This document shows, in pieces, positions 36,892 to 63,328 of a DNA stretch of 64,000 bases. Made by a program: the position numbers and the translations under genes. The notes beneath the pieces are model-generated. The model was not told where the DNA came from and searched no databases. It saw only the letters and a program-made list of their open reading frames with translations. This DNA comes from Chrysoperla carnea (Eukaryota; Arthropoda; Insecta; Neuroptera; Chrysopidae): assembly GCF_905475395.1 (NCBI RefSeq), contig NC_058339.1, forward strand, positions 89,662,520 to 89,726,519, in the 5' to 3' direction. Every line of letters starts with the position of its first letter. Position 1 is the first letter of the stretch.

Positions 36892-39800
36892 ATGAATCTT
36901 AAATTACTTGTAATCTTACTAATTAATATTGTATTTGTTTCAAAAGTTAATGGTAAGTTTTCGCAAATTTGTAATTGATTCCTTGAAAACATAAAATAAA
37001 CAAAAATTTAAAATTTAAAATTTAAAAAACTGAAAACTAAAAATTCGACCTTGATTTTCAATATATCTTGAAAATTGAGTCTACAAGTTATCAACACAGA
37101 CGAATAGTATTTATTATCCTTGATAACTATTGTTTTAAACATTTTTCTAAAGTTAGCGTATTTTCTTTCGATTAAATACAATAATGACATATTTTTAAAA
37201 CAAATTCCTAAGAAAGGTAACGATTTTCGAAAAAATATTTTGAATAAAACATTTTAATTTTTTTATGAGGAGCAACTTTTAAGTTAATTTTAGTGTCCGA
37301 CTGAAGGTCGATTTTTGGCCGAAGCCGAAGCCGATTAATCGGCTATCGGCACAACCTTCGGCCGAAGCCGAAGCCGAGCCGAAGCCGAAGGTTTAAAAAC
37401 ATGATTTAAAACTTGAATATTAAAGTTGATCTCTAGAAGTTGATCTAGAGATTATGATCTTTAGAAGTTGATCTAGAAGTCAATCTAAAGATGATTAAAA
37501 AAATTACCTTGAAATTTATTTCAAAATAATAACATTTAGAACAATTCGTTCAATTCCGACGTTTGCTAGGAACCTTCAGCCAAAGGTTCGGCCACGGCCT
37601 GAATTCAGGCCGAAGCCGAATGTTGGAAGGTGGTTTTTCTGGCCGAAAGTGGTCGAAGCCGAAGCCGAAGCTTCGGTCGGACACTATTTAAAGTTCTATT
37701 CTATCTCTTACCTAGCAGGATCTAAATTAGAGCTACCCGGAGAACTAGGTCCAATATGATGTCAGTATTTTATATATGAAGTATATCGAGGTATACTAAG
37801 TTTAGTCCCAAGTTTTAATACCATGTATATATAAAATATATCAAGATATAGTAAGTTTAGTTCCAACTTGTAACGCTTAAAAATATTGATGCTATCAACA
37901 AAATTTTGGTACAGTTAGTTGATTTGGTATTTAGATTTAATTTATAACTGTGTATTTTGTTAGGGTCAGCTTTTTCACCACCATTTTCTAATTTCTCCTC
38001 CAAAATAATACGACAAAATGTAATCGATTCAAGAGCGGATATAACTCATCACCCGTGTATGGTAAGGAACCAAAATTATATTTTTAATATTACAATATTA
38101 TACTTTGTAACTTTCTATTAAGATACCGTGGGTAAATTTCACCGAAAGTAGAGAAAGTAATCCGATAAGTTAGAGAGCTAAATATAACAGAATATGTCTA
38201 ATTCAAGGTGTATATTGCAAAATAATGACAAGAAAAATACAAATCTTGCGGAAGCATTGGAAACCAAATTGATTTTATTGCTATTCTTCAGTCTTAAATT
38301 TAAAAAAAAAATGAGTAAAAAATACTTCTCAAAGATCAGATAATTTTCTCTGAGAAATATTTCTCTTTTTTGTTTAAACTAGGAGTGTCAGGATAAAAAA
38401 AGATAGTCAGTCATTGGGACTGTCGACAGAAATAAAAAGTTAAAACTTTGGAATAGCTGTGATCTTTTTTTAAATTTTTAAATCAATGATAGAAGGTGTA
38501 ATTTATTAAAATTTCATAGATTCAAATTATTATTATAGTGTGTATAAAAAAACTATTTTAAATAATAAAAAAAAGCAACAATACGCAGTGATTCAAGCGA
38601 TCTCCCATCCTAGAACCAAGTGTGCTCACTGTTGCTTAACTTCAACGATCGGGTGTGAATCATTGCTATCAATGTGGTATGTATGGAGCGTGACGATGAC
38701 ACGAGTTCCATTATTCTTGTTCACCCAACAAGTGTTCAACGTGACTAAAAAACCTTTCACTTAAAAAAAATTGCATTTGTACAATTAGTGATACGTTCTA
38801 GCGATCTAATAAAAATCTCATTCCCCCCTCCCTTCGACACTCATCTAAAATTCGCATGTCGTTGTGACCTCACTGAAAGTAGCTTATTTAGACTCGTTCT
38901 TAAAACAGGTATGATATTTTAAAGTAGTTTCTTTTTTGCACACTCACGATTTTTAAAACACAGTCATTTGTTTGATTTTTTTTGCTTTAAATTTTACAAA
39001 ACTAATCATATCAGGTTCAAGTGTATGTGCTACGAAGACAAGAAGAAGGTTTCGCCGGTGTAGATGATTGGCATTTTGTATGCGGTGGAGCCTTGATTCA
39101 GCCTATGGTGGTATTAACTGCTCAAAGCTGTGTTTATGAAACATTATTTTATGCTGTTGATGCTGGAACACATGAAACTCATAGCTGTGAACATTTTAAT
39201 TATGTAACTAATAAAAGGATGCATCCTTTATACATACCGGGGCAGCCTGATTACAATGTGGCAATGCTTAAGGTATGTAAAAGACTTGAATCCGCACAAA
39301 TTAATTATTAACTTACTGGTAGGAACAATGAAGGACAAGCGAAAAACTTCTAACATGAAGCTTTTTTTGGAAAAAGTTCCACACTTTCTCGAAGTATCAC
39401 AAAGTCGGTCGAGGAACTTTTCTTGGAAATATATTTTCGTCAAATCGATTGCTATAGTATCTAACAACCTTTGGAAAAATGTTTTAAACAAAATTGGTTG
39501 TTGTTTTTATAAAATCAAACTTTGTGGTTTCTACTTTTTCCTTATCATTACGAAAAATATAACATAAAGACACGTGCGTATAAGCACAAATTTCCGTTGA
39601 AAGAATAATAACTTAACTTCTATCAGAAGGAAATAAATGTATTTCTATAGCCCATGTTAAATTAAAATCGGAGTGCGATGTCTTTCTCCGAGTAAAACAA
39701 CTTTTACTCCGACCAAAGTTTTCCCCTATAACGCTTCTATTCATCTCGATTATTTAAAATTTGAAATGTGTTTTTCGTTATACATATATTCAACTTTTAT

Positions 39801-42800
39801 GTTTTGTTAGGTGGAAAGGCCATTCGATTTATCATCGAAAGTTGGCCTTTGTATTATATGCTATACTCAGGATTGGGAAAATATTATGGAGTTTTCAAGG
39901 TGAGCCATTTAACTCGATATATCTTAAAAATTTCCTAAAATACATCAGCTACAAAAACTAGTTCGGATAAAAATTGTTAAGTTTGAGATGAGACAAAATA
40001 TTTTCACCGGGAATTTGATCTGTGTTTTCAGGATCACATCAGGAAGTATGTGCATTATCAAGCTCATATACGGCGTGTTAGAAAAATAACGAAATAGCAA
40101 AATAATTTATGTATATTCTAGTTAGTTATCGAAGAATGTACTAAACAGATTCTTTCTTTTATAATGCTTTTATAATTATAACCAACCTTGAAATTTAACT
40201 TATTTCCATACAAGAAAAAATAAATTCAAGTTCCATTTCTGACAAATCTACTAAGCTGCTGTTCATTTTCAGAATGTATACAATTCTTCTAGGTCTACAA
40301 CTTTACTATGCAACTGTTTCTTCTAAATATTTTTTTTAAATTTAGTTATTATTGTAACAACAGTCAATCTGTTCATAATATTTTTTCAACAGTTCGGTAA
40401 AACAAGGTTTTCCTTTCTAAATTTTCCGAATTCTTTGTTTTTATTAAATATTGTTTTTATAGAGAGAGCATTCCTAAATGAAGTTTTCAAGTTATACATG
40501 AATATATATCGACTCGTTGCCTGTTGTTTTTAAAGTCATATTTCTACGAATGCATTCGATTTTCGAAAAATAGTTTCAAATTAATGAAGAAAAAGCTTTC
40601 AAAAAATTATTGATATTTCATATGATAATATTTCAAATAAAAATGATAATTTAAAGTTTCATTTTTAACCAAACTGCCGGTTATTCTATGGAAGCTATTC
40701 GGTGGAAGCTTGGTTTGAAAGTGTTATTTTATCTCTTACTGATTATGAGTTGACTCTTAAGTGATCCTGATTATCAATACCAAATTCAAGGTCAAAATAA
40801 GATGACTACCATCAATCTCAATTATTGTTCCGCGATCTCGTATGTAGGGTTTCGTAACCGAACATTTACCAACGGAACCGTATTACTAAGACTCCGTACC
40901 GTCGTACAAATACTTTACAAATTCTACTTATTGTTTGGTATACTGAGTGCATCTCTTAATTCTTTTGCAAAAGTATTTAAAAAGTACATAATGTAACATC
41001 GTGTACGATGGTCCGGAACCGTTGGTGAAACTGATGTATTTTATGAATTTTTTTAGTATAAATTAAAATAACTAACTTATTTAATTTGTATTTTTACATT
41101 CAGTCAACTCAAAATAGAAGGAATGGCAGTAGGATGGCGTAGTGGAAAATTACGAAATTACGTGGCTACGGTAAGTGAATTTCTTTTTACACGTCTTTAG
41201 GAGCATTGTGAAAGAAAAATTATTAAGAGTTAATTTTTACGATGCGCGCGTACAGAGTGGCGATATATACAACGTGTCTACTTAAGTTGGCTCCATATGG
41301 AAAACTTTTCTTTTATATCGTTTACGTTTATCGTTATCGTTTACGAAAAAAGCTTTTTTTTATAAAAATTTCTGCTTTTGAAAGTAAGCTGATCAATTTT
41401 AACATCGAATGTTCAGGATGTCCCCAGAATTTGAAAAAGTTCAATAGGAATGTTAATAGTCGTTTTGAAATGTAGATCATTTAGAACAGATAATAAGGAA
41501 AACGATTCAAGAAATCTCTCCGGAGATATCTAGGAGTGTATTATACGAATTTTGTAAAATAATAATTACATGTGTGAAACGCGAAGGTTAAGGCAAAAAC
41601 GAACTGCCTTGGGCTTAATGAAATTTTTTCTGACTCCACTGTATCTGGTACTGTATAAAATTTGAGAAAATTAACAGGATTTTCGAGAAAAAAAAAATGA
41701 TTACCTATAACATATCCGAATTTCAAAGCGATAGAGTAAGGGATATAATCGCAGTGCTTGAAATTCAGTTGTAACTTTAACCATTATTATCTTGAAAACC
41801 GCTTTTCTTTATAAATTATTTTCCCGCCAATGAAAATTTAAGTGGGTTCTTCAGGAAAATATAAAGTTTCAAGCCAATCAATAATGTTTAAAATTTGTAC
41901 ATGAGAGCCTTAATCAAACAATAGAATTCTATAAATATATATTCCAAATTTTTCGTTCTATTTTATTCATTCACTTCGCTGAAACTTCCTCACTTCGCTG
42001 GGCTTAAAAGTAAAGACCACCGCATTATAATCGCCACCTTTCTTGCTCTCACTTATCTCCGTTCCATAGCACTGGAAATAGGGTAGAGATTGTTTTACAC
42101 AGGTCAAATACATGAACATGTTTCAATTTTTTTGAAATGTTATATAGTCTTGATTCATTGAGTGTATCAGAAAAGGTGGCCATGAATTTATCTAGTTCAG
42201 AATTTTTACAGAAATCTTTAACTTACGGTTCAAAATACTGCTAATAGATGGCGTAGTGAAAGGTCATAGACTAAATTAATTTTTTTTTAATTTTTATTTA
42301 GTTTTAATATTATTTCTTTATAAATTATAGCTTACCTTCGCAGTCGCTAATGACCCAGACGTTAAAAGCGACTTAAAAGAAAATAAAAAAATTAAAAAAT
42401 TATAGCCTAGTTTTTTCGTGAAAGCGTAACAAACACACAAACAAACAAACATCCATACTTTCACATTCATAATATATAGGGTTGTTCCTACTTACCTACG
42501 TATCTTGAAATCTTTGTGCAACGCCAAATATTTAACAATTTATTTGTTTTTTGTTCATTCAGGAACTTCATCATGGATATTTTGATATTTTAAGGAGATC
42601 TGCATGCGTTCATCGTATTAAAGAATACTTTCCATTGTCTGGCAGTGATCAAAACCAAGCTTTTTGTACTGTTTTCTGTTTATGTAAAGAAGAGATGTCG
42701 TATCAGAAAATACCAAATGTGTGTTACAGAGAAAATGGTGCACTGCTTTTTGTAGGAAAATATTTATGGGGTATTTCATCAATTCTCGGAGATGGTAATA

Positions 42801-43000
42801 GTTGTAAACAAACCACGACTTTCTTGTTTACAAAATTGGTTTATTATGGTATTGCGCATTGGATAGAAGCTATTAAGACAGAATTTAAAACTCTTCAGCC
42901 TCGACCCACATCATGGTTGAAAGATTCCGAGACTCCCATGCCAAATGCTTGTGAACGAAATACACCAATAGAAAATACCAAAGAGTATTATTGGGGTTGA
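36892..43000 (+). CDS. SPH1: secreted trypsin-fold pseudoprotease
   Basis: Six exons: 36,892-36,952, 37,964-38,061, 39,015-39,272, 39,811-39,899, 41,104-41,170 and 42,563-43,000 (TGA), 336 aa. Residues 1-20 are a signal peptide (MNLKLLVILLINIVFVSKVN); residues 21-53 are a linker with no IVGG activation site. The S1A fold is shown by FVCGGALI..VLTAQSC (C42/C58), YNVAMLK, AVGW and a C-terminal YGIAHWIEA helix. All three catalytic positions are lost: His57 is Ser (residue 91), Asp102 is Asn (134) and Ser195 is Asn (249, in CYRENGAL). It is therefore expected to bind rather than cleave. Unlike its paralogues, the exon before GW is split by an extra 1.2 kb phase-2 intron, and a C-terminal tail of about 35 residues follows the helix. 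It is the first of six tandem paralogues. The biological role is unknown. Confidence 0.9.
37140..37775 (+). repeat. R9 repeat interrupted by a MITE
   Basis: The left part (TTTCTTTCGATTAAATACAA to ATGAGGAGCAACTTTTAAG) and the right part (TTAAAGTTCTATTCTATCTC to AACTAGGTCCAATATGATG) together match one continuous R9 segment at about 34,915-35,120. The 37,293-37,684 MITE therefore inserted into an older R9 copy within SPH1 intron 1. Confidence 0.65.
37293..37684. mobile_element. GCCGAA-rich MITE with TA target duplication
   Basis: The ends are inverted: GTGTCCGACTGAAG on the left and CTTCGGTCGGACAC on the right, each flanked by TA (37,291-37,292 and 37,685-37,686). TA duplication suits a Tc1/mariner-type element. 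Clusters of the hexamer GCCGAA, in both orientations, fill about 37,317-37,395 and 37,570-37,675, making this the most GC-rich patch in the area. It is 392 bp and non-coding. Confidence 0.8.
37772..37911 (+). repeat. R1 fragment with doubled terminus
   Basis: Two successive copies of the R1 left end (GGTATACTAAGTTTAGTCCC, then ATATAGTAAGTTTAGTTCC) precede TAACGCTTAAAAATATTGAT. The rest of the element is missing. It lies in SPH1 intron 1, about 50 bp before exon 2. Confidence 0.75.
38575..38689 (-). pseudogene. 5S rRNA-like pseudogene
   Basis: On the minus strand this reads as a nearly full-length 5S rRNA relative: CATACATACCAC near the 5' end, CCCGATCGTTGAAGTTAAGC and AAC across the box A region, then GGATGGGAGATCGCTTG for the box C/loop E region, and TGCGTATTGTTGC at the 3' end. 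It is followed at once by a run of eight T (A at 38,567-38,574), as expected for RNA polymerase III. Length is about 115 nt against the usual 120. The 5' end no longer pairs with the 3' TGTTGC and there are many substitutions, so I call it a pseudogene. It lies antisense in SPH1 intron 2. Confidence 0.8.
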
Positions 43001-44298: not shown

Positions 44299-44302
44299 AA
44301 TA

Positions 44303-44508: not shown

Positions 44509-47500
44509 ATGATGGACTTTAAACGACAGTTATTTCTATTTCTTAACATTGCCTTTGTTTCAAAAGTAGTTGGTAAGTTTTCAAAATTTATTTATGGTTT
44601 TAAAAAATTTTCTTCTTTTCTACATTTATACTTATTTGCTAAATTATTTATTTAAATTTAAGGGATCGATTTCTTAATACCAATATCAAATTCCACTTTC
44701 AAAATACAACGACAACAAGACAAACCCAGAGCGAGAATCGAAGACCATCCATATGCGGTAAAAAAAAAACACAATTGTATATACTAGCTTAATGTTACCA
44801 TACACAGTAAAACTTTTACTTGGCTGTTGATGTTCTTATAACAAGTAAATATGTCTTGAATCAAGGATCTCGAAGCTTAACTCAAGAAAATTGGTATTTG
44901 AATGTTTATAAATTTCCTTGAACCAAGAAAGTTTTTACTTGCAATTATTACTTTATTTTACAGTGTATACTAATCATAGGTATTAAACCATTTAATTTTC
45001 GAGGTTTGGTTTTTATCAAAATACAAGTATTTTACTCGAAAAGCATGTTTTATTGAGAAAATTTCTTCAAGTAAAATTTGTTATATTGAAAGTTATAGGG
45101 TGAGGGTCTGAGAGACTTATTTCATAATTTATTTCGACTGCACTTCTTTATCATCTCAGACCGTCAAAACTTATGGAGGGCTTTTATTTCAATTCGATTC
45201 AATTTATTCATTCTTTTCTAAGAGTCTAAGGTTCAAAGCAACAATTCGTCTAGAGAATATGGACAAATATTCAATAAATACTTTTTTTAATGCGGCTACA
45301 AAATTCGATCCATATTTCTTCATTATAGAATTGATTGTTTTACATTTTATAAAATTATACAGACGAATAGCTTGATTTCGAGATCAAAAACCGATTTAAT
45401 GAGATGTCGTTAAATTTTTTTAACGGCTTTTACAAGCAAAGTACCTTGGAATATGTTAGGCCAAAATGGAGAGTAAAGCCGTCATGTTTATCTTGACGTC
45501 AGATATTCTATTATACTTTGCTGGTCAAGAGAAATTTACCTCAATATCACAACAAGTAAATTTCATCCACCAGTTCGGATCTCTGCTTTTGTGAACAGTC
45601 CAAATATGAAAATTGATTTGATTGTATAAAATTATTTCTGCCTAAAATGTGTGCGTATTAATAATTATTTGAATTTCCTAAATACCAGGTTCAAATTTAT
45701 AAACGTGAAGGAGAAGATACAGGAAATCCATACTGGCAGTATACATGCACTGGAGCCTTAATAGCACCTCAGATAATAATAACTGCTGCGCATTGTGTAT
45801 ATGTCACGAAATATTATGGTGTTAATGCTGGCGAAAATATAACGTATAATTTTCTGAATTGGAGACTTGTTGTTAACAAAAGATTGCATCCATTATTCGA
45901 GAATATTGATCAAACTGAATACAATGTTGCATTGCTTAAGGTAAATAGGAAAAGGTGCAGTATCAAGAAACAAAATTTACATTTATGTATTTTTTGAAGT
46001 CTTAAATTAAAATATCACAATCAAAATGCATTTTTTGCTATAAAAAAACTATGAAATTAATCGTAACATTATGCAGTTTGCGATAATATTTAGTCTTCGT
46101 TTTTGGAATTTCTGTACCATCGGATAACAAATTAGGTATTTTTACGTTTATGGTGTGCGCTTATAGTTTTATACAGACTTTTAGAACAAATATGGCAGAC
46201 TTGCCTCTAAACATATTCTGTTTTAATCCATTTTCTACTCCTCTATATAGGTACTTACACAAATACGCTTTTGCCTACTAAGAATTAAACGGTTGAATAA
46301 AGTTTCAAATGATTAATCATGATATGTAGATAACAAAACACAAAATTAATTTTTATAAAATCCCAGAATTATTATTATTTAAAAAACATAAATTATTTAA
46401 AATTATACATCCGATCACGTTACAGCAAACACCAATCAGATGTACTTTGAAGGAACTACGTCACGCCATATGAATACCTATGAAAGCTTACAAATACAAA
46501 AAGATAAACTTGCAAGTACTTGTAACTTGCATAAACAAAAATGATTGTATGTCAAGTACTGTCATTCAAGACGCCATGGTAGTCTACACTATTTTAGAAG
46601 TAAATTTGACTTGGTTTTTTTAAATACAAAATACTTACTGTAAAAAGTATTTTTTTTTAAATAATACTTTATTGGTGTTAATCAGATACTAATTCTGTAA
46701 CGCATAAACCAATTTTTCAAATTTAGGACAAAAGCCTGGTAATAAATTGTTCAGATAATTTTTTGTTTTTGTTTCTTTAGTTTTTATTAAATTTTTTTCA
46801 GTTGGAAAGGTCATATACGTACACAGATAAAATTAAACGTATCTGTATATGTTGGAACTGCGATTGGGAGTATAAGGCACATATCAAATTCAATATATCT
46901 GGAGAAATAGTTGGATGGATGGAGGTAAGCCAGATTGTTTCGATTGTTTCTAAAGTACTTGATACGCCAATCTGAGCTAGAATTTCATAAATATACCAAT
47001 TTCAGAGGCTAAGTAACTTCTGTTTGCATTGTGAACACTATGTCGAAATTTGGCCTAGGTATTTATATTATCCTTCTTTCCAATTTCCAATATTCTGCTT
47101 GCTGCACTTAGAATATACTTATTTTTCGCAGAAATTGAGTTAAACAAGTGAAAACAAACAACTTACTGAGTTAATTGTTGAAATACCATGCATAGCCAGT
47201 GTTGATTTCTTTATACATAACACATACATGCATGTGACCCACCTGATATTCAAGTATAGATAGAACATACTATAAAATTTCCGCCTAATTTGCGCGATGT
47301 TTACAAACAAATGTTTCAAACAAAAGTTTTTTATTCTTTTATAAGGAACATTTTTTACATTTAAATTTTTGTTCTATCTCCAACGGTTTACAAGATGGGT
47401 CCTACGGACCCAAGACCCAATTGACCTATAATGTCCTGAGTACGCTGTAAAAATTTTAGCTCGATATCTTTTTTCGTTTTTGAGTTATCGTGTACACCGA

Positions 47501-48396
47501 CGGACGGACGGACGGACAACCGGAAATGGACTAATTAGGTGATTCTATGAACACCTATATGAAAAATTTGGTGGGTAGCATCAATATTTTTAAGCGTTAC
47601 AAACTTGGGACTAAACTAAGTATACCTTGCATATTACATATATGCATGGTATAAAAATTTAAATGTAAAGAAAGAGAAAGAACAAAAGTTTAGATGTAAA
47701 AATGTTCCTTATAAGAAAATATACAACTTTTGTTTGAAACATTTTTTCACTGTGTACCCGTGAGGGAGCAAATTAGGTTATAAACAAAATATACAGGTAT
47801 TGTATATTTTTAAATTTGTACGTTACATGGTTTTTATCCCACTGAGGCAATGAGAAGAAAGATACTCTTATTACTTTGTGTGTAAGAGTGGCTACCTTTC
47901 TTTACTTACTAAGCCAATGGTCTCTTTTTACTTGTGATGAAATTCTGTGCCAGTGAGTGTATTTTAAATCCTTTTTTTGTTTGTTAAGAATGGCAGACAG
48001 GGCAGTGTGATCGAAAAGGTAAAACTAGAAGTTACAAACAGAAATATTTGCTCAAACCTTTGGAAAACTCATTCTACCATCTTTGAGGGATCCTTACAAC
48101 ATCAAATGCATGAACATCGTATATGTTCTGGTTTTTGCTTAAAAACACCAGATTATACAGTAGAAAATGGAGGCTCGTCTGAGAAAATTTGTGGTCCTTC
48201 AATTGGTGCACTGTTTGTCAAGAACAACCAGTTATTTGGAATTGAATCACGAATATTATATCAAGAAAAGGGACATGCCACTTGTCAAAACGCCAATTAT
48301 TGGTTTCATTCAAAATTATCATATTATGGAGTAGCGCATTGGATTGAGGCCACAAGAAAGGAACTTCAAAGATCCATACCAAATCTGAACGGATGA
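44509..48396 (+). CDS. SPH2: secreted trypsin-fold homologue, His57 kept
   Basis: Five exons: 44,509-44,572 (a second in-frame ATG at 44,512 matches the paralogue starts), 44,663-44,757, 45,689-45,940, 46,802-46,924 and 47,989-48,396. Length is 312 aa from 44,512. A 20-residue signal peptide precedes a linker with an NST sequon and the PYAV motif that opens the protease domain; there is no IVGG. TCTGALIAPQIIITAAHC keeps the canonical His57 (residue 87), the only member to do so. Asp102 is Asn (131, in EYNVALLK). The Ser195 region reads CGPSIGALFV, aligning Ser at 194 and Ile at 195 (residue 249), so the nucleophile is displaced or lost. YYGVAHWIEA is the closing helix. It is closest to SPH4, sharing APQIIITAA. 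Intron 4 hosts an R1 repeat. It is probably not an active protease. Confidence 0.9.
47147..47650 (-). repeat. R1 repeat in SPH2 intron 4
   Basis: This near full-length reversed R1 copy runs from AACAAGTGAAAACAAACAAC to CATATATGCATGGTATAA, with a GACGGACGGACGGACGG tract. A small deletion removes part of the core near 47,430. Confidence 0.88.
47665..47785 (+). repeat. R1 fragment, inverted relative to its neighbour
   Basis: AACAAAAGTTTAGATGTAAA, TGTTCCTTATAAGAAAATAT and ACTTTTGTTTGAAACATTTT followed by GTGTACCCGTGAGGG are the internal part of R1 in plus orientation. It sits next to the reversed copy and makes an inverted R1 pair. Confidence 0.75.
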
Positions 48397-49790: not shown

Positions 49791-52700
49791 ATGGAGCTTA
49801 AACGACTTTTACTCATAATTCTTAACATTGAGCTGACTAAAAAAGTAGTTGGTAAGTTTACAAAACCAATTCCATTATTCTGATAATGGTGCTACGTCAC
49901 GATTTTAAGACGGCTGGATAGTTTAATTTTTTTTTTCTTACTGAAATTAATGTTGCTTTTAAAATCAATATTAAGACAATTTGTTTGAAATCATTTTTCA
50001 TAAGCTTTTAGCATAAATTATAATTACCAAGCAGTTTTGTCGTTGCTAACACCGCGTTAAATATTATTCCAATTATGAAAGAAACGTATTAAAATCATTT
50101 TAGTGGAGCTGTAATTTTAATATAATATATTTTTGTAATTAAAAAATTTAATTTTAATTTGCATGGCTGAAAATAGGTTGCTTTACTAATACGCATCCCG
50201 CGTTAATTATGGAAACCGTTCTTAGGCGCAAGACGTACTTCGCCTTCAACTAAGTTCAATAAAGAAAAAAGGTAAACTCAATAAGCAATGAAATTCAGTC
50301 GTATTAAAAAGACTATCGAAAATACTTTCAATCACAACTACCGTTAGACTAATAAATTCGACTATCATATGTCTAGCGAAATTCCATTAATGTTTTTCTC
50401 TTATGGCCAAAAAAGGCCATATTAATGCAGCTTGTAATTAATTGGACCTTAATTGAAAACAGTGTTTTCGTTTTTGTTTTAGGTTTTATACGGCCATTAT
50501 CAAATTTCACCTCCAAAGTTCCACGACAGGAATATGAATACTACGGAAATGTGGTGCAGCATCCATATGCGGTAAAAACATAACAAATGTTTGGTTGGAA
50601 GTTTTACAAACTGTTATCAAGATCATAAATACTGTTCTGCTTAAAAAAATACTCAACTGCTTAAAAACTGTCCCTATGTAAAAAAGTTTAGAGCAAGAGA
50701 ACTTCCCTTTCCAGTAGATTTGGAAAATTTTTAATTGCATGCTTAAATTTAAGTATCCACTGTGAATGCTATTCAGATAAGAAGATAATTGAATAAAAAT
50801 GCAAAAAATATTTTATCGAACATTTAAAATTAAGAAATTTTTTAGTTTTTCGAAGACCTCAAAAATTGGAATTTCAAAGTATTTGGCGACGCACGCGTTT
50901 TTTTTTCAGTGCTGGACAAACTGCTATTTGAATTTTTTTATTAAAATTTCTTCTCATTTGAATATCAACTCCAATGAAAATTCACCAATTTTAAGCTTGT
51001 TCCGCAGGTTTTTCCCAGGAATTAAAGGGTGAAATTTTTTCGGTTGCCATTTAAAAGAATTCCTCGTGTATGTTAATTTTCGAAAAGAATTACGATCTTG
51101 ATAACAGCCTCAATAATATCCAGCGGTTCTGAAACTACTATCAAATACCACGCCTGACCCTAGACCTGGAAGTCTGATAAAAGTGTTACATTATCGTAAT
51201 TTTAAATGTGCCGCCCAAATATGACTCAGGGAGTTAAAGTCTAATAAAACGCAGTATACGAAACTATTACATAGAAAATTCTTAAATTTGGAAAGAGAAA
51301 TCGCTACACGAAATTTTAAAACATGTAACTCATGATATTGAAACAATTTGTTTAAAATATTTTATTAGTTATTAATTAGTTTTCCTTAAAATCAGGTTCA
51401 AATTTATTCGACGGAAAAAGTCCGTAAACCTACATATTTCGAAGTTGATGGTTGGAATTTTGAATGCAGTGGAGCCTTGCTTTCGGAGATACTGGTATTA
51501 ACAACTGCAAAATGTGTACAAGATAAAAAATTTTATATAGTTTGTGCTGGAGATACGGCCACTTATTCTTTTATGAATCCCGCAGTCCCAACACTTGTTG
51601 TTAACAAAGCTGTCCATCCTTTGTATGAAAAAGGCAACCCTGATTACAATATTGCAATGGTTAAAGTATGTAAACTTTTGATATGTAAACTTTTATGTTT
51701 AAAAATTATTTATAGCCAAATAGGTGACAGATTTTTTTACGCCTCCTCATTCCGTGAATTTTTAAAAGGTCTTGCGTCTTGTTTTAGCTCAAAAGCTAAA
51801 TAAAAACTTTTGAAAAGCATGGCTTATTACTGACAGATTAATTTTTATTATCCGTTAAATGACATCAGTTTAAAAATTAATTTTCAGGTAATCCCGTCAC
51901 TCATAACTTCTATAACAATCCATTCGATCGAAATATGTTATACCCAAAATTGGGAATATTTATCAGAGTGGAAAAAAGCGAATGCAACAGTAGTGGGATG
52001 GGAAAAGGTAAGTTTAACTAAACCGGGAATTCAACGCCATCAAATATGTTTCGGCTCCCTGTAAGTTCTGGAATGATTGGCAATTACTATTTCTGAACAT
52101 ATTGCCTGTATTTGTAAAATAATGAGATTTTGTATTTATAATTATAGGCAATATTATTACATAAATGATGTGTATATCATTTTGTGTGAAAACTCAAATT
52201 AATAATAAAACAAAGCAATATTGAATAGCTCCGTGAAAATAACACCCCCACATGGGAATGGGATTCGTTTGTCCATCATTTAAACAATTTTTTCCAACCC
52301 AAAATTTGTCCACCCTCTATAATTATAAATTATGACATAGTTAAAAATTATAACAACAGCACCCTCCAGATGCAAATTTTCTTCCAAAGGAAGATGCCAT
52401 TCACGAACATTTACGTTTGTTTTTCTTTCAGATTTAAATTTTCTTTAAATTCAGAATTTTGGGTGGGCAAACGAATTTATTCAGCATTTTATGAACATTC
52501 ACATAAGGGAGTACTATTTTCACAGAGCTATATTGAAATTAAAAGTTCCGCGAGCGGTGCTAAATGGTTCTGCACGCATCGAATAGCGCCAAATATTGCA
52601 AGTACCTTTTTGTTTTTGTTAAGAATGAGGATCGTAAAGAAATTTCCATCGATTATACGAAAACTATGGCGAAAAAAGAATGTGGCTTGAAGATGAAGAG

Positions 52701-52962
52701 TTTGAGAATATTCGCTGATCCCGTACCGCCGCTATGTACCAGTAGTTGTTTAGAAACACCCTATAATTGTAAAAATCAAGAAGGTGCACTTGCTATCGTG
52801 AACGGATATTTATATGGTATTGGATCCCAGTTAGAGGATGAGGATTGTGAAACCACCTTTTATACAACGTTTACATCTTATGGTATAGCGCATTGGATAG
52901 AAAAGCATATGCAAATATTGTCCAATTCTGACAATTGGATAACAGGATTTGAGAATAAATAA
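49791..52962 (+). CDS. SPH3: secreted trypsin-fold pseudoprotease
   Basis: Five exons: 49,791-49,851, 50,483-50,571, 51,396-51,665, 51,888-52,007 and 52,624-52,962 (TAA), 292 aa, the shortest member. The signal peptide is MELKRLLLIILNIELTKKVV, less hydrophobic at its end than in the others. The linker has an NFTS sequon and ends HPYAV. FECSGALL..VLTTAKC keeps C42 and C58 with Lys for His57 (residue 89). DYNIAMVK has Asn for Asp102 (135). CKNQEGALAIV has Glu at the Ser195 position (233), so all three catalytic residues are gone. VVGWEK and YGIAHWIEK mark the fold. The stop codon overlaps an AATAAATAAA signal. It is expected to be a secreted, non-catalytic binding protein; the target is unknown. 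Confidence 0.9.
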
Positions 52963-53836: not shown

Positions 53837-56800
53837 ATGGACTTCAAACAATTTTTATTTCTAATTCTAAACATTGTGTCTGTTTCAAAAGTAAATGGTA
53901 AGTTTCTTAAATTATTAATTACCCTGGTGAAAAAAATATTTGAAGAAAGAATAAGAAATTCTGAAAAAGTCTTAGGAACTTTGAATTTCTCTACGTTTTC
54001 GGACTAGTCTAATTCAGAGTTATTCAGAGTTCTTAATACTTTTTTAAAGTTTAGAAGACTTTTTCAGAGTTTCCTAAGACTTATTAAGACTTATTCTTTT
54101 TTCAAATAGTTTTTCCACCAGGGTATTTATTAATTTAGCTGTGTGTTTAAAACATCACATTTCATATATTGTGTTCTCCGAAATATACCAAGATACAAAC
54201 GTCTTCGTATCTCAATATTTCTAAGCGTTACAAACAATTGAGACTAAACTGAAAATACTTTGATATATTTTACACATTCATTGTATAATAATAAAAGTTG
54301 GGTAAAAATTTTAATCAAAAAGAGTTGATTATTATACGAAATTTCCCGTTGAACAACTTTGCTCCCTCCATAATTTTTCTAGAAATGAATGAATGGTTTT
54401 TGAGAAATTCGATATTTTCGAATGTTTCATGTTTCGAATGAAGAAAAACGTAGTCAATGCTTCAATTATATTCCAAGAGCTAGAAGTTTCTCAAAACCAA
54501 TTGAATTTTTAGAAGAATCACAACAAAGTAAAAATTTTCGTTTCATTCATTATTCACTTAAAACTGTTCTTCCTTTTTGATTAAAGGGACTATGTTTTTA
54601 TTCCCAATATTAAATTCCACCGCCAGAAGAGCTCAAATGCCAGGAGTAATGGTCAAAGTCGACGATATTGACAAGACAAGAGCGGAAATAGAAGATCATC
54701 CGTATGCGGTAAAAAAATAGCTTACTTATCACCTAAAATTGCATAAGTATTTGTACCTATCTACAAGGCCTATGCTTATGCGTAGTATCTGACAATTATT
54801 ATAGAACGATTGGAAAGACGCCATCTGCAATCGTTTACAATCTGAAAGTGGGGTTTTTGATTCTCTAAATTTTAAACCAAAACTTTAAAACCAACAATTC
54901 TTGTTATAATCATTTTTCACGGAATATCAATATTTATCGAGATAATTGACTTCTTCTATGATTCAAGATAGCAGCCATCTCTTTAGGAATTCGAGGACGG
55001 CGAGGGGCGGGGGTACCATTAACGCAAAACCTTGTTGTACGATTTTACTATTCTAATTTGCTGATCTTACATATGTTTAATTGTATAGGGAAGTTCTTGT
55101 AACCAATCCGAAAATCCAAATCGAAGCATTCGAACCATATCTTTACGTTTCATGTCCTGGATAATGTGTTAACACCACTTTTAGATTGAAGTCTATGTGT
55201 ATACCATGTGTGTGTGTGTGTGTTCGGGTACATTTTTACGTTCACAATTTGTCGTGAAAGAAAGATGATAGCGATTTCTGATATATATTCCAAGCTCTAA
55301 GAAATTCGGGCGTTGAAAGGGGGAGAAGAAAATGATAATTTTCTGTTCAGATTATGAAACTGGAAACAGAGAGCGAGTATTTGTAAGTTACATATCTCGG
55401 TTGAAATATAATTAATAATAAAGTGTTTTAGGCAGTTATAGAAAGTTATTTTCATCATCTATAGCAAGTTGAATATGTGTGGATCATAACAGCTTGTTTT
55501 TCTGATCGAATTTGTCTAGATTAAGTTTAACGAATGATTATTTTTAATTATTAATAAAAAATATTAAATGTCAGGTTCAAATTCACCAGTATAAGAATGA
55601 AATAAATCCAGATAATGGTTGTGTGCTGGGATATCAATTCATTTGCACCGGAGCTTTGTTAGCCCCTCAGATAATAATCACTGCTGCAAAGTGCGTATAT
55701 GTGGATAATTATTATGGTGTCAATGCTGGAGTTGTATGTACTAACGAATTTACAAATTGGCGTACTGTTGTTAATAAGCGCATCCATCCCTTATTCGCTC
55801 TTGGAAATTTTGACTTCAACGTCGCATTGATTAAGGTAGACAAACTTTTAACAAAATGCATAAAATTACAAAAAAAAAAAATCAAATCTATATTTTCAAA
55901 GTAAAACATGATTCATATTGATCGAAGTAGACTAGAATTATTGTTTGAAGCAATTCTAATAATTGATGAAAGCTGGATTGGAATCACAATTCCGGTTCAT
56001 TATTCGAGCTAAATACCACTTACCAGTTACTGCTGATACAAATGCTTCTGCATGTGTTTTTATTTTAAAATCAATTTTCAGGTGGAAAGACCTTTCGATT
56101 TATCAACAAAAATTACACCAATCTATTTAAGTACTTATGATTGGGAATATAAGAGAGAGTTTGAAGACGTGAGTGGCACAATAGTGGGATGGGCGCAGGT
56201 ATGTTGACATGTTTTATAAAAAAAAAGTAATACCATCGAGCCGGTATTTAAGCCTATTTTGAATTTCGATAGTAGGAATACAACAGTAAACACGCTTTAA
56301 GCGTAATACGGCTTCCTTTGTAGGTCATACAATTTAGTCAATCAAAGAGTAACTGTTTTATAGAAATTGCCACCGTTTAGCAGACAAAAACACTTGAAAT
56401 AACATGGCGAATCCGACTTCTTCATCAGGGATGCTACTGATTTTGTTTTCATTCTTTTCTTTTGAAGTTTTGCAATTTTTTGTTTCGGAATTTGATAAAA
56501 CTTAGTTGATAGGGTAATTTTGACTGAAAAATCCGATTTATTTGGTGATCTGGCGATTTGTTTGTTAAGACAAGACCTTTTCAAGATCCACAAGATGCCA
56601 CTGAGCTACAACAAGATACATACAGACTTATAAAAAAAGAAGAATGCGATTCTCAACTGAGTTGGATGGAATCCAATGAGAAACCTGCACCCGAATTATG
56701 TGCCAGTTTTTGTTTGGAAAAACCAGCGTATGGTCCCAAGCCTAGAGTTTGTATCAGTCAAATTGGTGCGCTGTTTGTCAAGAATCGTCGTTTATTTGGT

Positions 56801-57001
56801 ATTGCCTCGTATCTGCAGTTTAATTGTAAATGGTCGTATGTCAATAGTAAAATAGCCTATATTTATGCAAAACTCACACATTATGGCATACGGCATTGGA
56901 TAAATGCAACTATGGTACAATTATCAACAACGAAGCCAAACATTCTGGTGAAGCGGCTCAAATTATTGCGTAATCACAAACTACAAGTTTGCCGCAGATA
57001 G
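53837..57001 (+). CDS. SPH4: secreted trypsin-fold pseudoprotease
   Basis: Five exons: 53,837-53,897, 54,587-54,708, 55,575-55,835, 56,082-56,198 and 56,570-57,001 (TAG), 330 aa. The signal peptide is MDFKQFLFLILNIVSVSKVN. The linker is longer than in SPH1-3, with NST and an acidic stretch before HPYAV. FICTGALLAPQIIITAAKC has Lys for His57 (residue 100), DFNVALIK has Asn for Asp102 (143), and CISQIGALFV has Ile at the Ser195 position (252). TIVGWAQ and YGIRHWINA mark the fold. A basic tail of about 25 residues, rich in Lys and Arg with a final Cys, follows the last helix and is absent from SPH3. The last intron ends in a sequence resembling the 27 kb satellite. The nearest poly(A) candidate, at about 57,325, is some 320 bp away. 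Confidence 0.9.
54166..54290 (-). repeat. R1 fragment in SPH4 intron 2 region
   Basis: AATATTTCTAAGCGTTACAA, GAGACTAAACTGAAAATACT and ATATATTTTACACATTCATT are the left end of R1, reversed and diverged. It lies in intron 1 of SPH4. Confidence 0.65.
56468..56560 (+). repeat. Diverged piece of the ~300 bp satellite
   Basis: GAATTTGATAAAACTTAGTT, ATAGGGTAATTTTGACTGAA and AAATCCGATTTATTTGG parallel the satellite segment AGAATTGGATAAAACTTAGT, TATAAGGTAAATATGACCCA, AAATCGGGTTCATTT. It ends about 10 bp before the SPH4 exon 5 acceptor. Confidence 0.45.
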
Positions 57002-57496: not shown

Positions 57497-57582
57497 TCAT
57501 TGCATCATGCGAATAATTTTTGGGTAATTTAAGTTAATTAATAACCTTATCTAATTTACTTATGTGCATTAGCAAAACGAAT
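57497..57582 (+). promoter_or_regulatory. Conserved upstream block, SPH5
   Basis: GCATCATGCGAATAATTTTT, TTTAAGTTAATTAATAACCT and TTATCTAATTTACTTATG, then GCAAAACGAA, are a diverged version of the shared block, ending 86 bp before the ATG. Confidence 0.5.
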
Positions 57583-57667: not shown

Positions 57668-60600
57668 ATGTGCTTCAGACGTATTTCATTACTATTTCTT
57701 AATATTGGATGGATTTCATTAGGTAAGCTTAGAAATATTTATATTTTTTTTTTGTAGCTAAAACGATTTACGTTGCGTATAAGACTACAATCAAAATTTA
57801 AGATTAAAAAAACCAGAGATAACTTCTTTTTTTGTGGCCGTTGTACGTATATATACGAAGAATAAATTATCAAATTTTTTAATTTTTCTTTATATTCTTA
57901 CTCCTACATAATCAACCTATTGAAATAATTTTGACAGTCAAAACAGTTTTCCTTTTTCATAAAAAGTATTTTATTGTAAATAAGAAATTACCGAATTTTT
58001 TTTATCCTACTTAGAAAAATTCTCGCGTTTGGGAATATTAATATGTTTAATGAAAATGGTTAAAAAAAAACACTCTAAAAAATATTTATCACATACTTAT
58101 ACATATTTAATTACTTATACACACAAATTCATATAAATGTGTAATGTGTAAATCCATATATAACAAGTGAAAACAAACAATTGACTGAGTTAATTGTTGA
58201 AATACCATGTATAGGCAGTGTTGATTTCTTTATCACATAACACATACAAACATGTGACACATACATAACTGATAATCAAGGTATAGTACATATTATAAAA
58301 TTTCCGCCTAATTGGCGCCCTTACGGGTAAACAGTGATGTTTACGAAAAAATGTTTGAAACAAAAGTTGTTTAATTTTTGATAAGGAACATTTTTTACGT
58401 TTAAACTTTTGTTTCTATCTCTAACGGTTTACAAGATGGGTCCTACGGACCCAAGACCCAATTGACCTATGATGCTCATTTACGAACTTGACCTCACTTT
58501 TTACGTCCTGAGTACGCTGTAAAAATTTCAGCTCGATATCTTTTTCCGTTTTTGAGTTATCGTGTCCACAGACGGACGGACGGACGGACAACCGGAAATG
58601 GATTAATTAGGTGATTCTATGAACACCTGAATTAAATTTTTCTCGTAGCATCAATATTTTTAAGCGTTACAAACTTGGGACGAAACTTAATATACTATGT
58701 ATATTTCATATATATATGGTATAAAAGATTTTTGATAACTTCGTTTAATTCACTCACAGATGGCGAGACTAAACTTCGCGATATACCTAATTAATATACA
58801 TTTATTATTTTTTGTATATTTTAATAGGTTACATTTCAGGTCTAAGTGCTTATATAGACGAATTCATAAATCCGGAAACGAATTTCATATCGAAAACAGA
58901 ACGATATGTATGGAAGAAACCAACACTCAATTCGCCGAATGATATGTTAATGTATGGTGGTATTAACACGAAAATTGAAGAATATCCATTTGTGGTATAA
59001 AAAATTTTAGGTGTCTAATAGAAAAAAATAAGTGAAAATTATTCCCTCGGGATAAAAAGATTCCTGGTTATCTCCGATGAAGTATATGTGTGTCTTTTAT
59101 GTATGGTTAGGTTAAAGTAGCTGTCTTGGGATAGTACAGACCATGAAGGCTATAAAGAAGGAGAACGATCGCTACGTGTTAAAGCATTAGCGCGTCTGTC
59201 CCTGAAAATTTGTAGAATTTATAGTTCATTTTTCAGCCACCAGCCGCGCTGTCATCAAGAAGTAGTATCTGCGAAGTTAGCGGTCGCAGCGCCTCACTTA
59301 TTTTATCCATATTTCGGGGACAATATTTTCTATGGCGATCGTTCTCCTTCTTATAACTTTCATGGTACAGACTCAGACCATAGGATCCGTTGTGATACCG
59401 AAAAGAGAATTGGACCATCATCAGCCACTATTTCATTTACCCTTTTAGATGTTTAAGAACAGCAAGAACAGCAGAAACTATTAAAAAGCAAAAATATTCC
59501 GTGTTTCCTTGCAAAATTGGGTCCACACTTCAACTCTCTGATCACTAGATGGTAGGTTCTTAAATTCATTTAGTAATAAAAACGGAAGACTTCACATGAT
59601 TCAAAAAATGGAAAACGAGTTTCCAATGTATATGCCATCTTCAAAAAGTTTCCTCTTATCCTAGGCAAATTTTTTCAGCCTTCTTTGCCATTCTCTTAAG
59701 CTCTAAATTTGTTGCAAGAATCAGAGTGTACTTTTAAAAATGTTCTTTATTCTTTCCAATGTACAAAAACTAGGTTCAAATATTCCAACGCATACGCAAG
59801 GTATTCCATGGAGAGAAAATATGGATATGGGATTTTATATGCACTGGAACCATTCTCTCAGAGTCGGTAATAATAACTGCAGCACGATGTATCAATGATG
59901 CGCAACAATATGGCATAATAGCCGGTGAAACATTTTGTGATAATTCAAGCCAATCACGTACATTAGACTGGAGTAAGAACGAAAATTTTAGAGAGATTGA
60001 CAAAAAGTCTACACGAATACATCCTTTATTCGGAAAAGATTCGGACATAGAATATAATGTTTCTTTGTTGAAGGTACAGTTTTACAAATATTTACTTTTA
60101 ATACGACAAAGTAAAGCTCGAACAAATTAATTTAATATTTACTTTAGTGCTATTAGTCTTCGAGTTTCCTTGTCTATATACGGAATGCAAAATCGAAAAA
60201 CGCTAAAATACGTATCGGCTTATTCTTAAAGGGAATAACTGCATAAGTCTAAATTTTATAATAAATGTGGGTAAATATGATTGAAGGCAAAGGAATCGAA
60301 ATATTCCCAAAAAACTTATTTTCGCGGCCTTAGACCTTGAATATCTAAGAACGCGTACACGTGACCATATGTAAGTTTTGAGCTATAGCACCACTAACTA
60401 ATTGGGGATATTAGTTATAAAAGTCTTTTCCGAAAGAAAAAACACCCCATTTTTTGTTTAAATATGTTTTTCTAATCAATTTTCAGTTAAAAGTAAGATT
60501 AATATATACAGACAAAATACAAAACATAAAAATCTGTCATAGAGATTTGGAATACTGGGCTAAAATAAATAAGGAGGAATTCGTGGGAGAAGTAGTGGGA

Positions 60601-62019
60601 TGGAATTGGGTAAGTTAATTTTTCAAAAGTTCTACACAAACATGATGATTCATTAAATGTTCAGCAGTGGATTCAATTTTCATGGCTGTGTTTGTTTAAA
60701 CACAAATTATGATACTACCCTCTCAGGAAATGACATTTATAAAATTATCACCAAGCTGAAAAATTTATAGAATATGCAGAATTCGATGTGTAATCTGCTT
60801 CACGATATTGGTAGAAAATTTCAAAGCTCAGAAAACTATTTTTTTAAATAACTTGTTAAAAATAGGCTTTTCGGCTGTTGAAGGGATTTCGTACAAAACT
60901 GTTTCTTACAAATTTTTTGTACAGCATCAACATTTATACTCTAAATCACGATTCAAAAATTTTTAATTGTTAAAATTATTCCAAAGAAACTGAAAAGTCC
61001 ATTTAAAAAAAATTAATATTTAATTTTCTTGGATTAATTACCAACCGTACAAATATCACCAGGCTGTATGTGGCCGAACGAAAAATTAAGTTGTATAGAC
61101 CTTTTCATCGTTTTGCTTTTGTTTCGGACATTTGTCAAAAAACTATTCAACCTAAGAAAGTTAAGTATATGTTATCTTTTTCAAGCAGCGCTTTTTGACA
61201 AGGATAGAAGATATAAGATATTTCTTTACTTGATTGAAAACAGTCCGAAACAAAAAAGAATCATTTTGTAAATGAAAAGCCCTATTCATAAGTGTGCACT
61301 TTGTCAACGACATCTGGTGGTTTAAAGTCATACTACCTTTAATGTGCAGTTTTAAATATCACGGATAAATTGAATTATAGCTTTTTCTATGTTATAACTT
61401 ACAGTGTAGAACTTATAAAAGTAATGTGGGTGGCCTCTGTTATAGATAGATATCTGAAACACGGAAGTTAAGCCCCATTATTATTATAACTTGTAGTTTA
61501 AAAGTCAGTCGTTCGACACCTTCTTCGAAAATCTTTTAATTTTTATAGACAACAAAGATCTTGTTATTCAGTTTTGGACAATTGTGAGTCCTGAGAATAA
61601 TTGTGAAATTCTACGATTGGTTCTAGTTTTATAATATTAGTATTAAATGATTTTTTTAGAGAAAGGACCAATATTGTTGTCCGATTTCCGAACAGCTAAT
61701 GAAAATCCAGCAAAAAATTACACCGCTTGAGCAATGTAGAAAAATGTTTTACGAAGATTCAAGTGGAAAAGATTATTTACCAACTTGTACAACATTTTGC
61801 GGTACTGAGTTTAAGTCTCAAGAATATTTGTGTAAATCTGATTCTGGAGCCCCGTTTGTATTCAATAATACGTTATTTGGCATAACGACTTTTTTCCCAC
61901 ATGAATGTGACAAAGACTTGAATCCGTTACGAACACGTTATGTGTTGTATGCACGACTGTCAAATGTTAATTTACTTACCTGGTTGAAAGAAGAATTGAA
62001 CAAACTTGACCAGGAATGA
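57668..62019 (+). CDS. SPH5: secreted trypsin-fold homologue, Ser195 kept
   Basis: Five exons: 57,668-57,722, 58,828-58,994, 59,774-60,073, 60,487-60,609 and 61,660-62,019 (TGA), 334 aa. The signal peptide (MCFRRISLLFLNIGWISLG) is followed by a long linker ending MYGGINTKIEEYPFVV, where MYGG sits where IVGG would be, a remnant activation region. FICTGTILSESVIITAARC has Arg for His57 (residue 112), and EYNVSLLK has Asn for Asp102 (169). CKSDSGAPFVF retains Asp194 and Ser195 (277), the only member to do so. With no His or Asp partner, normal hydrolysis is not expected. EVVGWNW and VNLLTWLKEE mark the fold. The 189 position is Tyr, not the Asp of trypsin. Intron 1 holds an R1 copy and intron 2 a hAT-type MITE. 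The GTATAA donor after exon 2 is weak, but the phase agrees with the paralogues. Confidence 0.88.
58161..58728 (-). repeat. R1 repeat in SPH5 intron 1
   Basis: This is the most regular R1 copy in the array: AACAAGTGAAAACAAACAAT, CCGCCTAATTGGCGCCC, GGGTCCTACGGACCCAAGAC, (GACG) tract, TAATTAGGTGATTCTATGAA and the palindromic TATATATATGGTATAA end, about 100 bp before exon 2. Confidence 0.9.
59142..59364. mobile_element. hAT-type MITE, internally deleted copy in SPH5 intron 2
   Basis: An 8 bp duplication, GTACAGAC, flanks the element (59,134-59,141 and 59,365-59,372). Ends CATGAAGGCTATAAAGAAGG and TCCTTCTTATAACTTTCATG match the 30,140-30,464 copy. The central ~100 bp of that copy is absent; the junction falls on a TTAGC shared by both sides of the missing piece. 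Confidence 0.9.
60270..60390 (+). repeat. R8 repeat in SPH5 intron 3
   Basis: TTGAAGGCAAAGGAATCG, AGACCTTGAATATCTAAGAA and ACACGTGACCATATG match 24,160-24,310. Confidence 0.65.
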
Positions 62020-62305: not shown

Positions 62306-62651
62306 TGTAAAAGTAAAAGTTGTTTATTTTTTTATAAGAAACATGTTTTACTTTTAAACTTTTGTTCTATATCTAAAAGCTTACAAGATTGATCCTACAG
62401 ACCCAAAACCAATTGATTTATGTTGATCATTTTCGAACTCGACCTCGCTTTTCAAAATGTAAGCTGGATATCTGTTTTCGTTTTAGAATTATCGTGTTCA
62501 CAGACGGGCAAACAGATAGACAACTGGAAATGGACTAATTAGGTTATTTTATGAACAAAATATTGTTCGTAGTGTCAATGTTTTTAGGCGTTGCAAACTT
62601 GGGAATAAACTTAGTATACCTTGATATATTACATATATACATGGTATAAAA
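62306..62651 (-). repeat. R1 repeat, partial, in the SPH5-SPH6 spacer
   Basis: AAAGTTGTTTATTTTTTTAT, AGATTGATCCTACAGACCCA, TAATTAGGTTATTTTATGAA and ACATATATACATGGTATAA are R1 reversed, lacking its far end. It stops about 50 bp before the SPH6 promoter block. Confidence 0.82.
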
Positions 62652-62698: not shown

Positions 62699-62765
62699 TT
62701 TGCTAATTAATTGAATTATTGAAGCTAATTAATAACTTTGGCTAATTTATTTATGGATTAAATTA
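62699..62765 (+). promoter_or_regulatory. Conserved upstream block, SPH6
   Basis: TTGAATTATTGAAGCTAATT, AATAACTTTGGCTAATTTAT and TTATGGATTAAATTAGC match the 3' half of the shared block. It ends about 114 bp before the ATG. The CATTTTATAAGCATG half is missing. Confidence 0.55.
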
Positions 62766-62878: not shown

Positions 62879-63328
62879 ATGGATTTTAATAAATTTTTTT
62901 GCTTAATTTTTAATATTGTGTTTATACCACATCTGATTGGTAAGTTTTGAAAATAATATTTCAAACAAAAAAATCGCGAATCTTCTTTGGAAGAACTCTA
63001 CTAGAAAAATCTTTTGGGGTATCAAATTGGTAGATTTTGACCAGATTGAAAAATAATCATAAAAATTGTTTGTCCGATGAAAAAAGTATATTTTTTACAC
63101 GGGTTGGACTTTTAAAAATGGTTTTTATTTAAAGGTGCAAATATTTATGGACAAGTAATGGAACCAATATCGAATTCCATAGACCGAAAATGGGACGTAA
63201 ATATGGAACATAAATACTTCAAGGGAAATAAACCAAACAAATACTCTGCCTACAACGGTGGAAGTAGCCGACCACTAATAGCGGGCGAGGGTGCTATAGA
63301 TGCTAAAACGATAGATTATCCTTATGTG
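62879..63328 (+). CDS. SPH6: trypsin-fold homologue, first two exons only
   Basis: Exons 62,879-62,939 and 63,135-63,328 are visible, giving 85 codons; the rest lies beyond the window, with 670 bp of intron 2 shown. The signal peptide is MDFNKFFCLIFNIVFIPHLI. Intron phases (1, then 0) match the other members. The linker is the longest of the family (about 65 residues) and ends RPLIAGEGAIDAKTIDYPYV. LIAGEGA at the correct distance before PYV closely resembles the IVGGxxA activation site of real S1A proteases. This member may be less degraded than SPH1-SPH4, but the catalytic residues cannot be judged here. The start is chosen by alignment to the paralogue signal peptides. Confidence 0.82.

What the first reader, a model, noticed from the sequence alone, without database searches (positions are those of the whole stretch)
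36892..63328. Six-member tandem array of secreted trypsin-fold proteins, each with a different broken triad
Seen: six head-to-tail genes with the same exon phases and signal-peptide exon. The residue at the His57 position is Ser, His, Lys, Lys, Arg in SPH1-5; at Ser195 it is Asn, Ile, Glu, Ile, Ser. Known: serine protease homologues act as cofactors, binders or decoys in arthropods. Inference: a lineage-specific secreted pseudoprotease family, possibly salivary, gut or immune, that keeps the disulfide and GW framework while the active-site cleft has been freed to vary. This is the best candidate here for an undescribed system.
Basis: partly seen in the sequence, partly recalled or inferred. 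Interest (0 to 1): 0.85.

Follow-up and report, generated by a model that had tools for sequence, protein, structure and literature searches.

The report
Eight dead-protease genes in a lacewing
A row of eight intact genes in the green lacewing makes trypsin-shaped, probably secreted proteins that have lost the parts needed to cut other proteins; such retired proteases are common in insects, so the kind is ordinary, but this family looks undescribed and its new job can be tested.

Summary
Confirmed, and larger than reported. The window is Chrysoperla carnea (green lacewing) chromosome 3. The array has eight genes: SPH1-5 complete in the window, SPH6 begun there, SPH6-8 ending within 11 kb beyond it. 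All eight give open spliced frames, match Pfam Trypsin above cut-off and keep at most one triad residue: His57 only in SPH2, Asp102 in SPH6 and SPH8, Ser195 in SPH5. Cleft glycines 193, 197 and 216 are replaced in 8 of 8. Selection is purifying in 7 of 7 pairs tested (omega 0.16-0.53). Relatives with intact triads share the exon phases. The array is one clade; positions 57 and 195 each changed at least twice inside it. Cleft positions evolve at the average rate: released, not hypervariable. A shared upstream element suggests common regulation. Best reading: secreted non-enzymatic binding proteins of a feeding-stage tissue; tissue and mechanism are inference. Insect serine protease homologues without regulatory domains are a known kind (PMC11172050); this is a new member.

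The parts
36892..43000 (+). SPH1 gene, 6 exons (36892-36952, 37964-38061, 39015-39272, 39811-39899, 41104-41170, 42563-43000), 336 aa; triad S57/N102/N195
44509..48396 (+). SPH2 gene, 5 exons (44509-44572, 44663-44757, 45689-45940, 46802-46924, 47989-48396), 313 aa; H57/N102/I195
49791..52962 (+). SPH3 gene, 5 exons (49791-49851, 50483-50571, 51396-51665, 51888-52007, 52624-52962), 292 aa; K57/N102/E195
53837..57001 (+). SPH4 gene, 5 exons (53837-53897, 54587-54708, 55575-55835, 56082-56198, 56570-57001), 330 aa; K57/N102/I195
57668..62019 (+). SPH5 gene, 5 exons (57668-57722, 58828-58994, 59774-60073, 60487-60609, 61660-62019), 334 aa; R57/N102/S195
62879..64000 (+). SPH6, exons 1-2 (62879-62939, 63135-63328); the gene runs on beyond the window to 65871 (379 aa; F57/D102/T195)
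57535..57564 (+). Shared upstream element of SPH5 (1 mismatch to TAATTAATNNCNTTNNCTAATTTATTTATG)
62726..62755 (+). Shared upstream element of SPH6 (0 mismatches to the pattern)
36592..36891 (+). SPH1 upstream stretch, aligned with the upstream stretches of its paralogs

Best explanation
Eight tandem genes, related to S1A protease genes of the same exon type, encode trypsin-fold proteins that do not cleave. Shown by computation: intact frames, S1 family membership, broken triad in all eight, replacement of glycines 193, 197 and 216 in all eight, an extra Cys four residues after Cys182 in all eight and in none of 11 catalytic rows, purifying selection, one clade, and a shared upstream element. 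Inferred: the substrate cleft was closed at or before the base of the array, after which His57 and Ser195 were lost separately in the two subclades because they no longer mattered; the proteins are secreted and act by binding other extracellular proteins through the surface of the fold; and they are made together in a feeding-stage secretory tissue (midgut or larval salivary/venom gland), by analogy with the mealworm Tenebrio.
For: Eight open spliced frames. Trypsin above cut-off in 8 of 8. Triad and cleft table: 193 is R,P,N,S,S,T,T,S; 197 is Ala or Val; 216 is L,I,L,L,F,F,F,F. dN below dS in 28 of 28 pairs; omega 0.16-0.53 with 2dlnL 8.7-65.6 against omega=1 in 7 of 7 pairs tested, of 28. 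One clade, 100/99, and 99/99 with the trait columns removed. Fewest changes over the whole tree: 3 at position 57 (one is psP1), 3 at 195 (one is the psP pair), 1 at 197. LCP1 and LCP3 have the same five exons and phases with H/D/S intact. Ten cleft positions that I chose: median rate 0.86 against 0.80 for the rest in the array (p=0.84), 0.12 against 0.74 in 11 catalytic rows (p=0.0006). Upstream 300 bases: mean pair score 46.6 against 21.0-23.8 after the donors of introns 1-3; 20 of 28 pairs reach the 99th percentile of upstream-versus-random. Tenebrio: of 84 proteases and 102 homologues without regulatory domains together, the majority were expressed only in feeding stages (PMC11172050 abstract).
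Against: No expression, proteomic or binding data were available here. The venom paper on this species names one venom serine protease that lacked the triad, in a double-domain group (PMC12758981 section 9), which speaks against this array being prominent in venom. Secretion rests on hydropathy only. dS is near saturation for most pairs. The AU test does not reject joining two other triad-broken genes to the array (p=0.283), so its root is open. Loss rather than gain of triad residues is inference; the tree is unrooted. No structure was predicted, so closure of the cleft is read from residues alone.
Confidence: 0.5

Rival explanations
1. Larval venom effectors: a narrower form of the best explanation, in which the array makes non-enzymatic venom proteins injected into prey.
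For: C. carnea venom holds 46 S1 gene products, of 227 S1 paralogs in the annotation, and one triad-lacking venom S1 (NVSPx11) is upregulated in venom-producing tissue (PMC12758981 section 9).
Against: One triad-lacking venom serine protease is named there, within a double-domain group, whereas the spliced models here are single-domain.
Confidence: 0.2
2. Haemolymph immune cofactors, working like clip-domain serine protease homologues in prophenoloxidase activation.
For: Clip-domain homologues are non-catalytic and needed for prophenoloxidase activation (PMC6901238, start of abstract in search listing).
Against: No clip domain: 0 or 1 Cys before Cys42 in the mature part of each, no clip match in Pfam. 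Where the activation site could be aligned (SPH5-8) residue 15 is Leu, so the usual cascade cleavage is unlikely there; SPH1-3 had gaps and SPH4 an insertion, so they were not judged.
Confidence: 0.12
3. Reproductive proteins (seminal fluid or female tract).
For: Serine protease homologues occur in the Drosophila sex peptide network (recalled; PMC3894160 seen only in a search listing that counts the term). Paralog divergence is high.
Against: No positive sign in the sequence; selection is purifying overall in the pairs tested.
Confidence: 0.1
4. Altered catalysis: Ser195 in SPH5 or Thr195 in SPH6-8 still gives some hydrolysis.
For: S195 is kept in SPH5; D102 with T195 in SPH6 and SPH8. PMC11172050 states that some homologues bind substrates and even give low-rate hydrolysis (passage).
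Against: Position 57 is Arg, Phe, Leu, Phe in SPH5-8, G193 is replaced in all eight and 216 is bulky in all eight.
Confidence: 0.05
5. Pseudogenes drifting to loss.
For: Triad broken in all eight.
Against: Eight intact frames at dS of 0.83 and more between paralogs, omega below 1 in 7 of 7 pairs tested, conserved upstream stretch.
Confidence: 0.03

Closest known systems
Serine peptidase homologues without regulatory domains of Tenebrio molitor (PMC11172050)
   Same: S1 domain, no regulatory domain, varied triad substitutions including N, I, E and T at 195, some with unconventional processing sites (passages)
   Different: In Tenebrio only 13 substitutions at Asp102 were reported among 125 homologues, whereas here 6 of 8 have lost it; orthology was not tested
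C. carnea venom serine proteases and NVSPx11 (PMC12758981)
   Same: Same species, S1 domain, a tandem array, one member without a triad (section 9)
   Different: NVSPx11 is placed in a double-domain group; the genes here are single-domain and all eight are triad-broken; sequences not compared
LCP1-LCP4, S1 genes with intact triad at C3:4.69, C3:4.92, C1:101.36 and C3:4.31 Mb of this genome
   Same: Nearest triad-intact relatives found; same exon phases in LCP1 and LCP3 (five exons modelled) and LCP2 (four exons modelled)
   Different: H57/D102/S195, G197 and G216 kept; no Cys four residues after Cys182 (rows)
Clip-domain serine protease homologues (CLIPA, PPAF-II type; features recalled)
   Same: Non-catalytic S1 domain, secreted
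   Different: No clip domain in the eight

Membership tests
S1A trypsin-like family (PF00089) | Pfam gathering score reached | tested here: met
   8 of 8, 36.4-67.0 bits against 20.6
S1A trypsin-like family (PF00089) | Cys 42, 58, 168, 182, 191 and Gly-Trp at 140-141 (numbering recalled) | tested here: met
   Cys columns 118, 134, 280, 307, 329 invariant in 8 of 8; Gly-Trp in 8 of 8. A Cys near 220 is present in each but spread over three alignment columns
Active S1 protease | His57, Asp102 and Ser195 all present | tested here: not met
   0 of 8
Active S1 protease | Gly193 in the oxyanion hole | tested here: not met
   0 of 8; among the relatives LCP2 has Ala there with an intact triad
Serine protease homologue (SPH) | S1 domain with at least one triad substitution | tested here: met
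   8 of 8
Serine protease homologue (SPH) | Secreted (signal peptide) | tested here: inconclusive
   Hydrophobic exon-1 peptide in 8 of 8, max 11-residue hydropathy 2.01-3.35; no signal peptide predictor at hand
Serine protease homologue (SPH) | No proteolytic activity | not testable with these tools
   Needs purified protein
Clip-domain SPH | N-terminal clip domain with six Cys | tested here: not met
   0 or 1 Cys before Cys42 in the mature part; no clip match in Pfam
Lacewing venom protein | Detected in venom or enriched in venom gland | not testable with these tools
   Supplement look-ups not available; main text seen in part

The most novel reading that the evidence does not exclude
In this lacewing lineage the substrate cleft of an S1 protease was closed first (glycines 193, 197 and 216 replaced, an extra Cys added), and only then was the triad dismantled independently in two subclades, giving a co-regulated set of eight closed-cleft binding proteins deployed together, possibly in larval venom or saliva as non-enzymatic effectors.
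Probability: 0.12. Interest if true: 0.55.

Novelty: new member of a known kind. Interest (0 to 1): 0.3.

Why it matters
Insects carry many non-catalytic serine protease homologues whose role is still poorly understood (PMC11172050, passage). Here eight sit in one intact array, with triad-intact relatives of the same exon phases in the same genome, which suggests an order of events (cleft closed, triad then lost repeatedly) that can be tested; deposited long-read RNA and a published venom proteome of the same species could show where they act.

Tried and rejected
Rejected: pseudogene decay (omega below 1 in the pairs tested, intact frames). Rejected: hypervariable cleft; the ten cleft positions that I chose evolve at the average rate. 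Rejected: clip-domain family. Weak: an upstream element shared with catalytic LCP genes; 3 of 24 comparisons exceed the 99th percentile of their null (LCP1-SPH1, LCP2-SPH1, LCP2-SPH3), 21 do not. Led nowhere: a genome scan with the element to find co-regulated genes gave 6 places, 3 of them in the array and 3 elsewhere at two mismatches, with 1 in the reversed control; SPH1-4 and SPH7 did not match that pattern. The PDB profile search, made with the first five proteins only, listed vertebrate coagulation factors first, best factor Xa (60 of 509 matches shown). IQ-TREE codon runs did not report omega, so I wrote a pairwise codon model. tRNA scans of the window and of L009 found none, under the tool's bacterial setting. 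Literature: no paper in the held library has both 'serine protease homolog' and 'lacewing'; other searches are. Residue numbering and the meaning of each position are recalled from chymotrypsin and were placed by motif alignment.

Full report
Source. G000 has 559,487,470 bases in 337 contigs. The genome note for Chrysoperla carnea gives 560 Mb, 337 scaffolds and chromosomes of 139.98, 100.74, 77.48 and 76.43 Mb, equal to contigs C1, C2, C4 and C5 (passages; contig lengths). Chromosome 3 is given there as 94.41 Mb, while C3 here has 94,120,854 bases; this is a mismatch. I take the window as C. carnea chromosome 3.

Gene models. Reading frames and splice sites gave SPH1-5 and the first two exons of SPH6 in the window. 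The 40 kb from C3:89726000, fetched, gave the rest of SPH6 and complete SPH7 and SPH8. All eight lie on + between 36892 and 74938 in window-extended coordinates. The shared introns fall in phases 1, 0, 0, 0 in all eight; SPH1 has one extra phase-2 intron. All acceptors are AG; donors are GT except one GC in SPH8. Each spliced frame has a single stop, at its end, while the other two frames have 17-38. tblastn of the eight proteins found no further member in the rest of the window, in 20 kb before it or in 39 kb after it.

Family. Trypsin (PF00089) is matched over the cut-off in 8 of 8. A profile of the first five matches 509 distinct PDB sequences at E up to 0.001, the best 8.7e-18. Cys at 42, 58, 168, 182 and 191 and Gly-Trp at 140-141 are invariant (numbering recalled). 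A Cys four residues after Cys182 is invariant in the eight and, reading the rows that went into, absent from all 11 catalytic rows.

Active site. Positions 57/102/195 are S/N/N, H/N/I, K/N/E, K/N/I, R/N/S, F/D/T, L/H/T and F/D/T in SPH1-8. No protein keeps more than one triad residue. G193 is replaced in 8 of 8, G197 by Ala or Val in 8 of 8, G216 by Leu, Ile or Phe in 8 of 8. Residue 194 is lost in SPH1-4 and kept in SPH5-8. Residue 15, just before the usual mature N-terminus, is Leu in SPH5-8; SPH1-3 have gaps there and SPH4 an insertion. LCP1, with an intact triad, also has Leu there and LCP2 has Gly, so lack of a basic residue is not peculiar to the dead genes. LCP2 also has Ala193, so that position alone does not mark a dead protease.

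Relatives. A genome search with SPH7 found 14 matches, all in the array. Searches with SPH4 and SPH5 found 28 and 24, the strong ones in the array and weak ones elsewhere. The tool scores only the best candidates, so these are lower bounds. From the weak ones I modelled LCP1 (C3:4.69 Mb) and LCP3 (C1:101.36 Mb), with the same five exons and phases and intact H/D/S, and four exons of LCP2 (C3:4.92 Mb), whose fifth lies next to it. A search with LCP1 led to LCP4 (C3:4.31 Mb, triad intact) and to two more triad-broken genes at C3:5.21 Mb, psP1 (E/N/F) and psP2 (H/D/F).

Tree. In a 21-row tree the eight SPH form one clade (100/99), split into SPH1-4 (100/99) and SPH5-8 (96/93). With the trait columns removed the values are 99/99, 100/99 and 95/90; LCP4 is flagged there as a long branch. 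The fewest changes over the whole tree between the usual residue and any other are 3 at position 57, 4 at 102, 3 at 193, 2 at 194, 3 at 195, 1 at 197 and 3 at 216. Reading the tree, one change at 57 is psP1 and one at 195 is the psP pair, leaving at least two each inside the array, while the single change at 197 lies at its base. Direction (loss, not gain) is inference. Holding psP1 and psP2 together with the array is not rejected (p-AU 0.283), so ten genes might share one origin.

Selection. Nei-Gojobori dN is below dS in 28 of 28 pairs, but dS is 0.83-2.29, near saturation. A pairwise codon model on 7 of the 28 pairs, mostly the closer ones, gave omega 0.16-0.53 and rejected omega=1 in each (2dlnL 8.7-65.6). 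Over 193 shared columns, ten cleft and catalytic positions that I chose have a median rate of 0.86 against 0.80 for the rest in the array (p=0.84), and 0.12 against 0.74 in the 11 catalytic rows (p=0.0006). The cleft is freed to the average level, no further.

Regulation. The 300 bases before the start codon align between paralogs better than stretches after the donors of introns 1-3: mean pair score 46.6 against 23.8, 21.0 and 21.2; 20 of 28 pairs reach the 99th percentile (35) of upstream-versus-random scores and 8 do not. Some introns are shorter than the 300 bases taken, so those stretches reach into exons, which can only raise the control. A second control, random pairs from the window, has a mean of 26.2 and a 99th percentile of 278; I read its tail as draws that overlap each other or share repeats, and do not rely on it. 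The core element with up to two mismatches occurs 6 times in the genome, 3 of them before SPH5, SPH6 and SPH8, with 1 in the reversed control. This points to shared regulation, or to slow divergence of one promoter, and does not name a tissue.

Context. In Tenebrio molitor 125 of 269 S1 sequences lack an intact triad (137 have one, 7 are multi-domain); of 84 proteases and 102 homologues without regulatory domains the majority are expressed only in feeding stages (PMC11172050, abstract and passages). In C. carnea 46 S1 gene products are in the venom and NVSPx11 lacks the triad (PMC12758981, section 9 read; otherwise outline and passages; supplements not read). In an earlier study proteases were nearly 40% of putative venom proteins (PMC11319779, passages). 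So the kind is known; this family did not turn up in the searches listed under Tried and rejected, which cover only the held open-access library.

Verdict. By their residues the proteins are very probably dead as proteases, and they are kept by selection. Non-enzymatic binding in a feeding-stage tissue is the best guess; no expression evidence was available here.

Noticed in passing
window 31913-32242: ORF with three MORN repeats (PF02493); of three upstream ORFs scanned it is the only one with a Pfam match.
   Followed up: partly
window about 47289-47660, 58160-58710, 62290-62650: Look-alike copies, judged by eye, of a dispersed repeat inside SPH introns and spacers; its 38-base core occurs 7318 times in the genome at up to two mismatches, 0 in the reversed control.
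   Followed up: partly
L033 (C3:5206000-5212500): Two further triad-broken S1 genes, psP1 (E/N/F) and psP2 (H/D/F), outside the array.
   Followed up: partly
L014 (C3:4.69 Mb): LCP1 has a full triad but Leu where Arg or Lys usually precedes the mature N-terminus, so its activation may use a different protease.
   Followed up: no
SPH1-8, four residues after Cys182; SPH5-8, two adjacent Cys after Gly-Trp: Extra cysteines, the first absent from the 11 catalytic rows; pairing unknown.
   Followed up: no
L015 (C3:4923800-4930000): A long inverted repeat seems to sit in the last intron of LCP2, seen on reading the sequence.
   Followed up: no
window about 53050-53150: ATATAATATAATA microsatellite between SPH3 and SPH4, seen on reading.
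   Followed up: no
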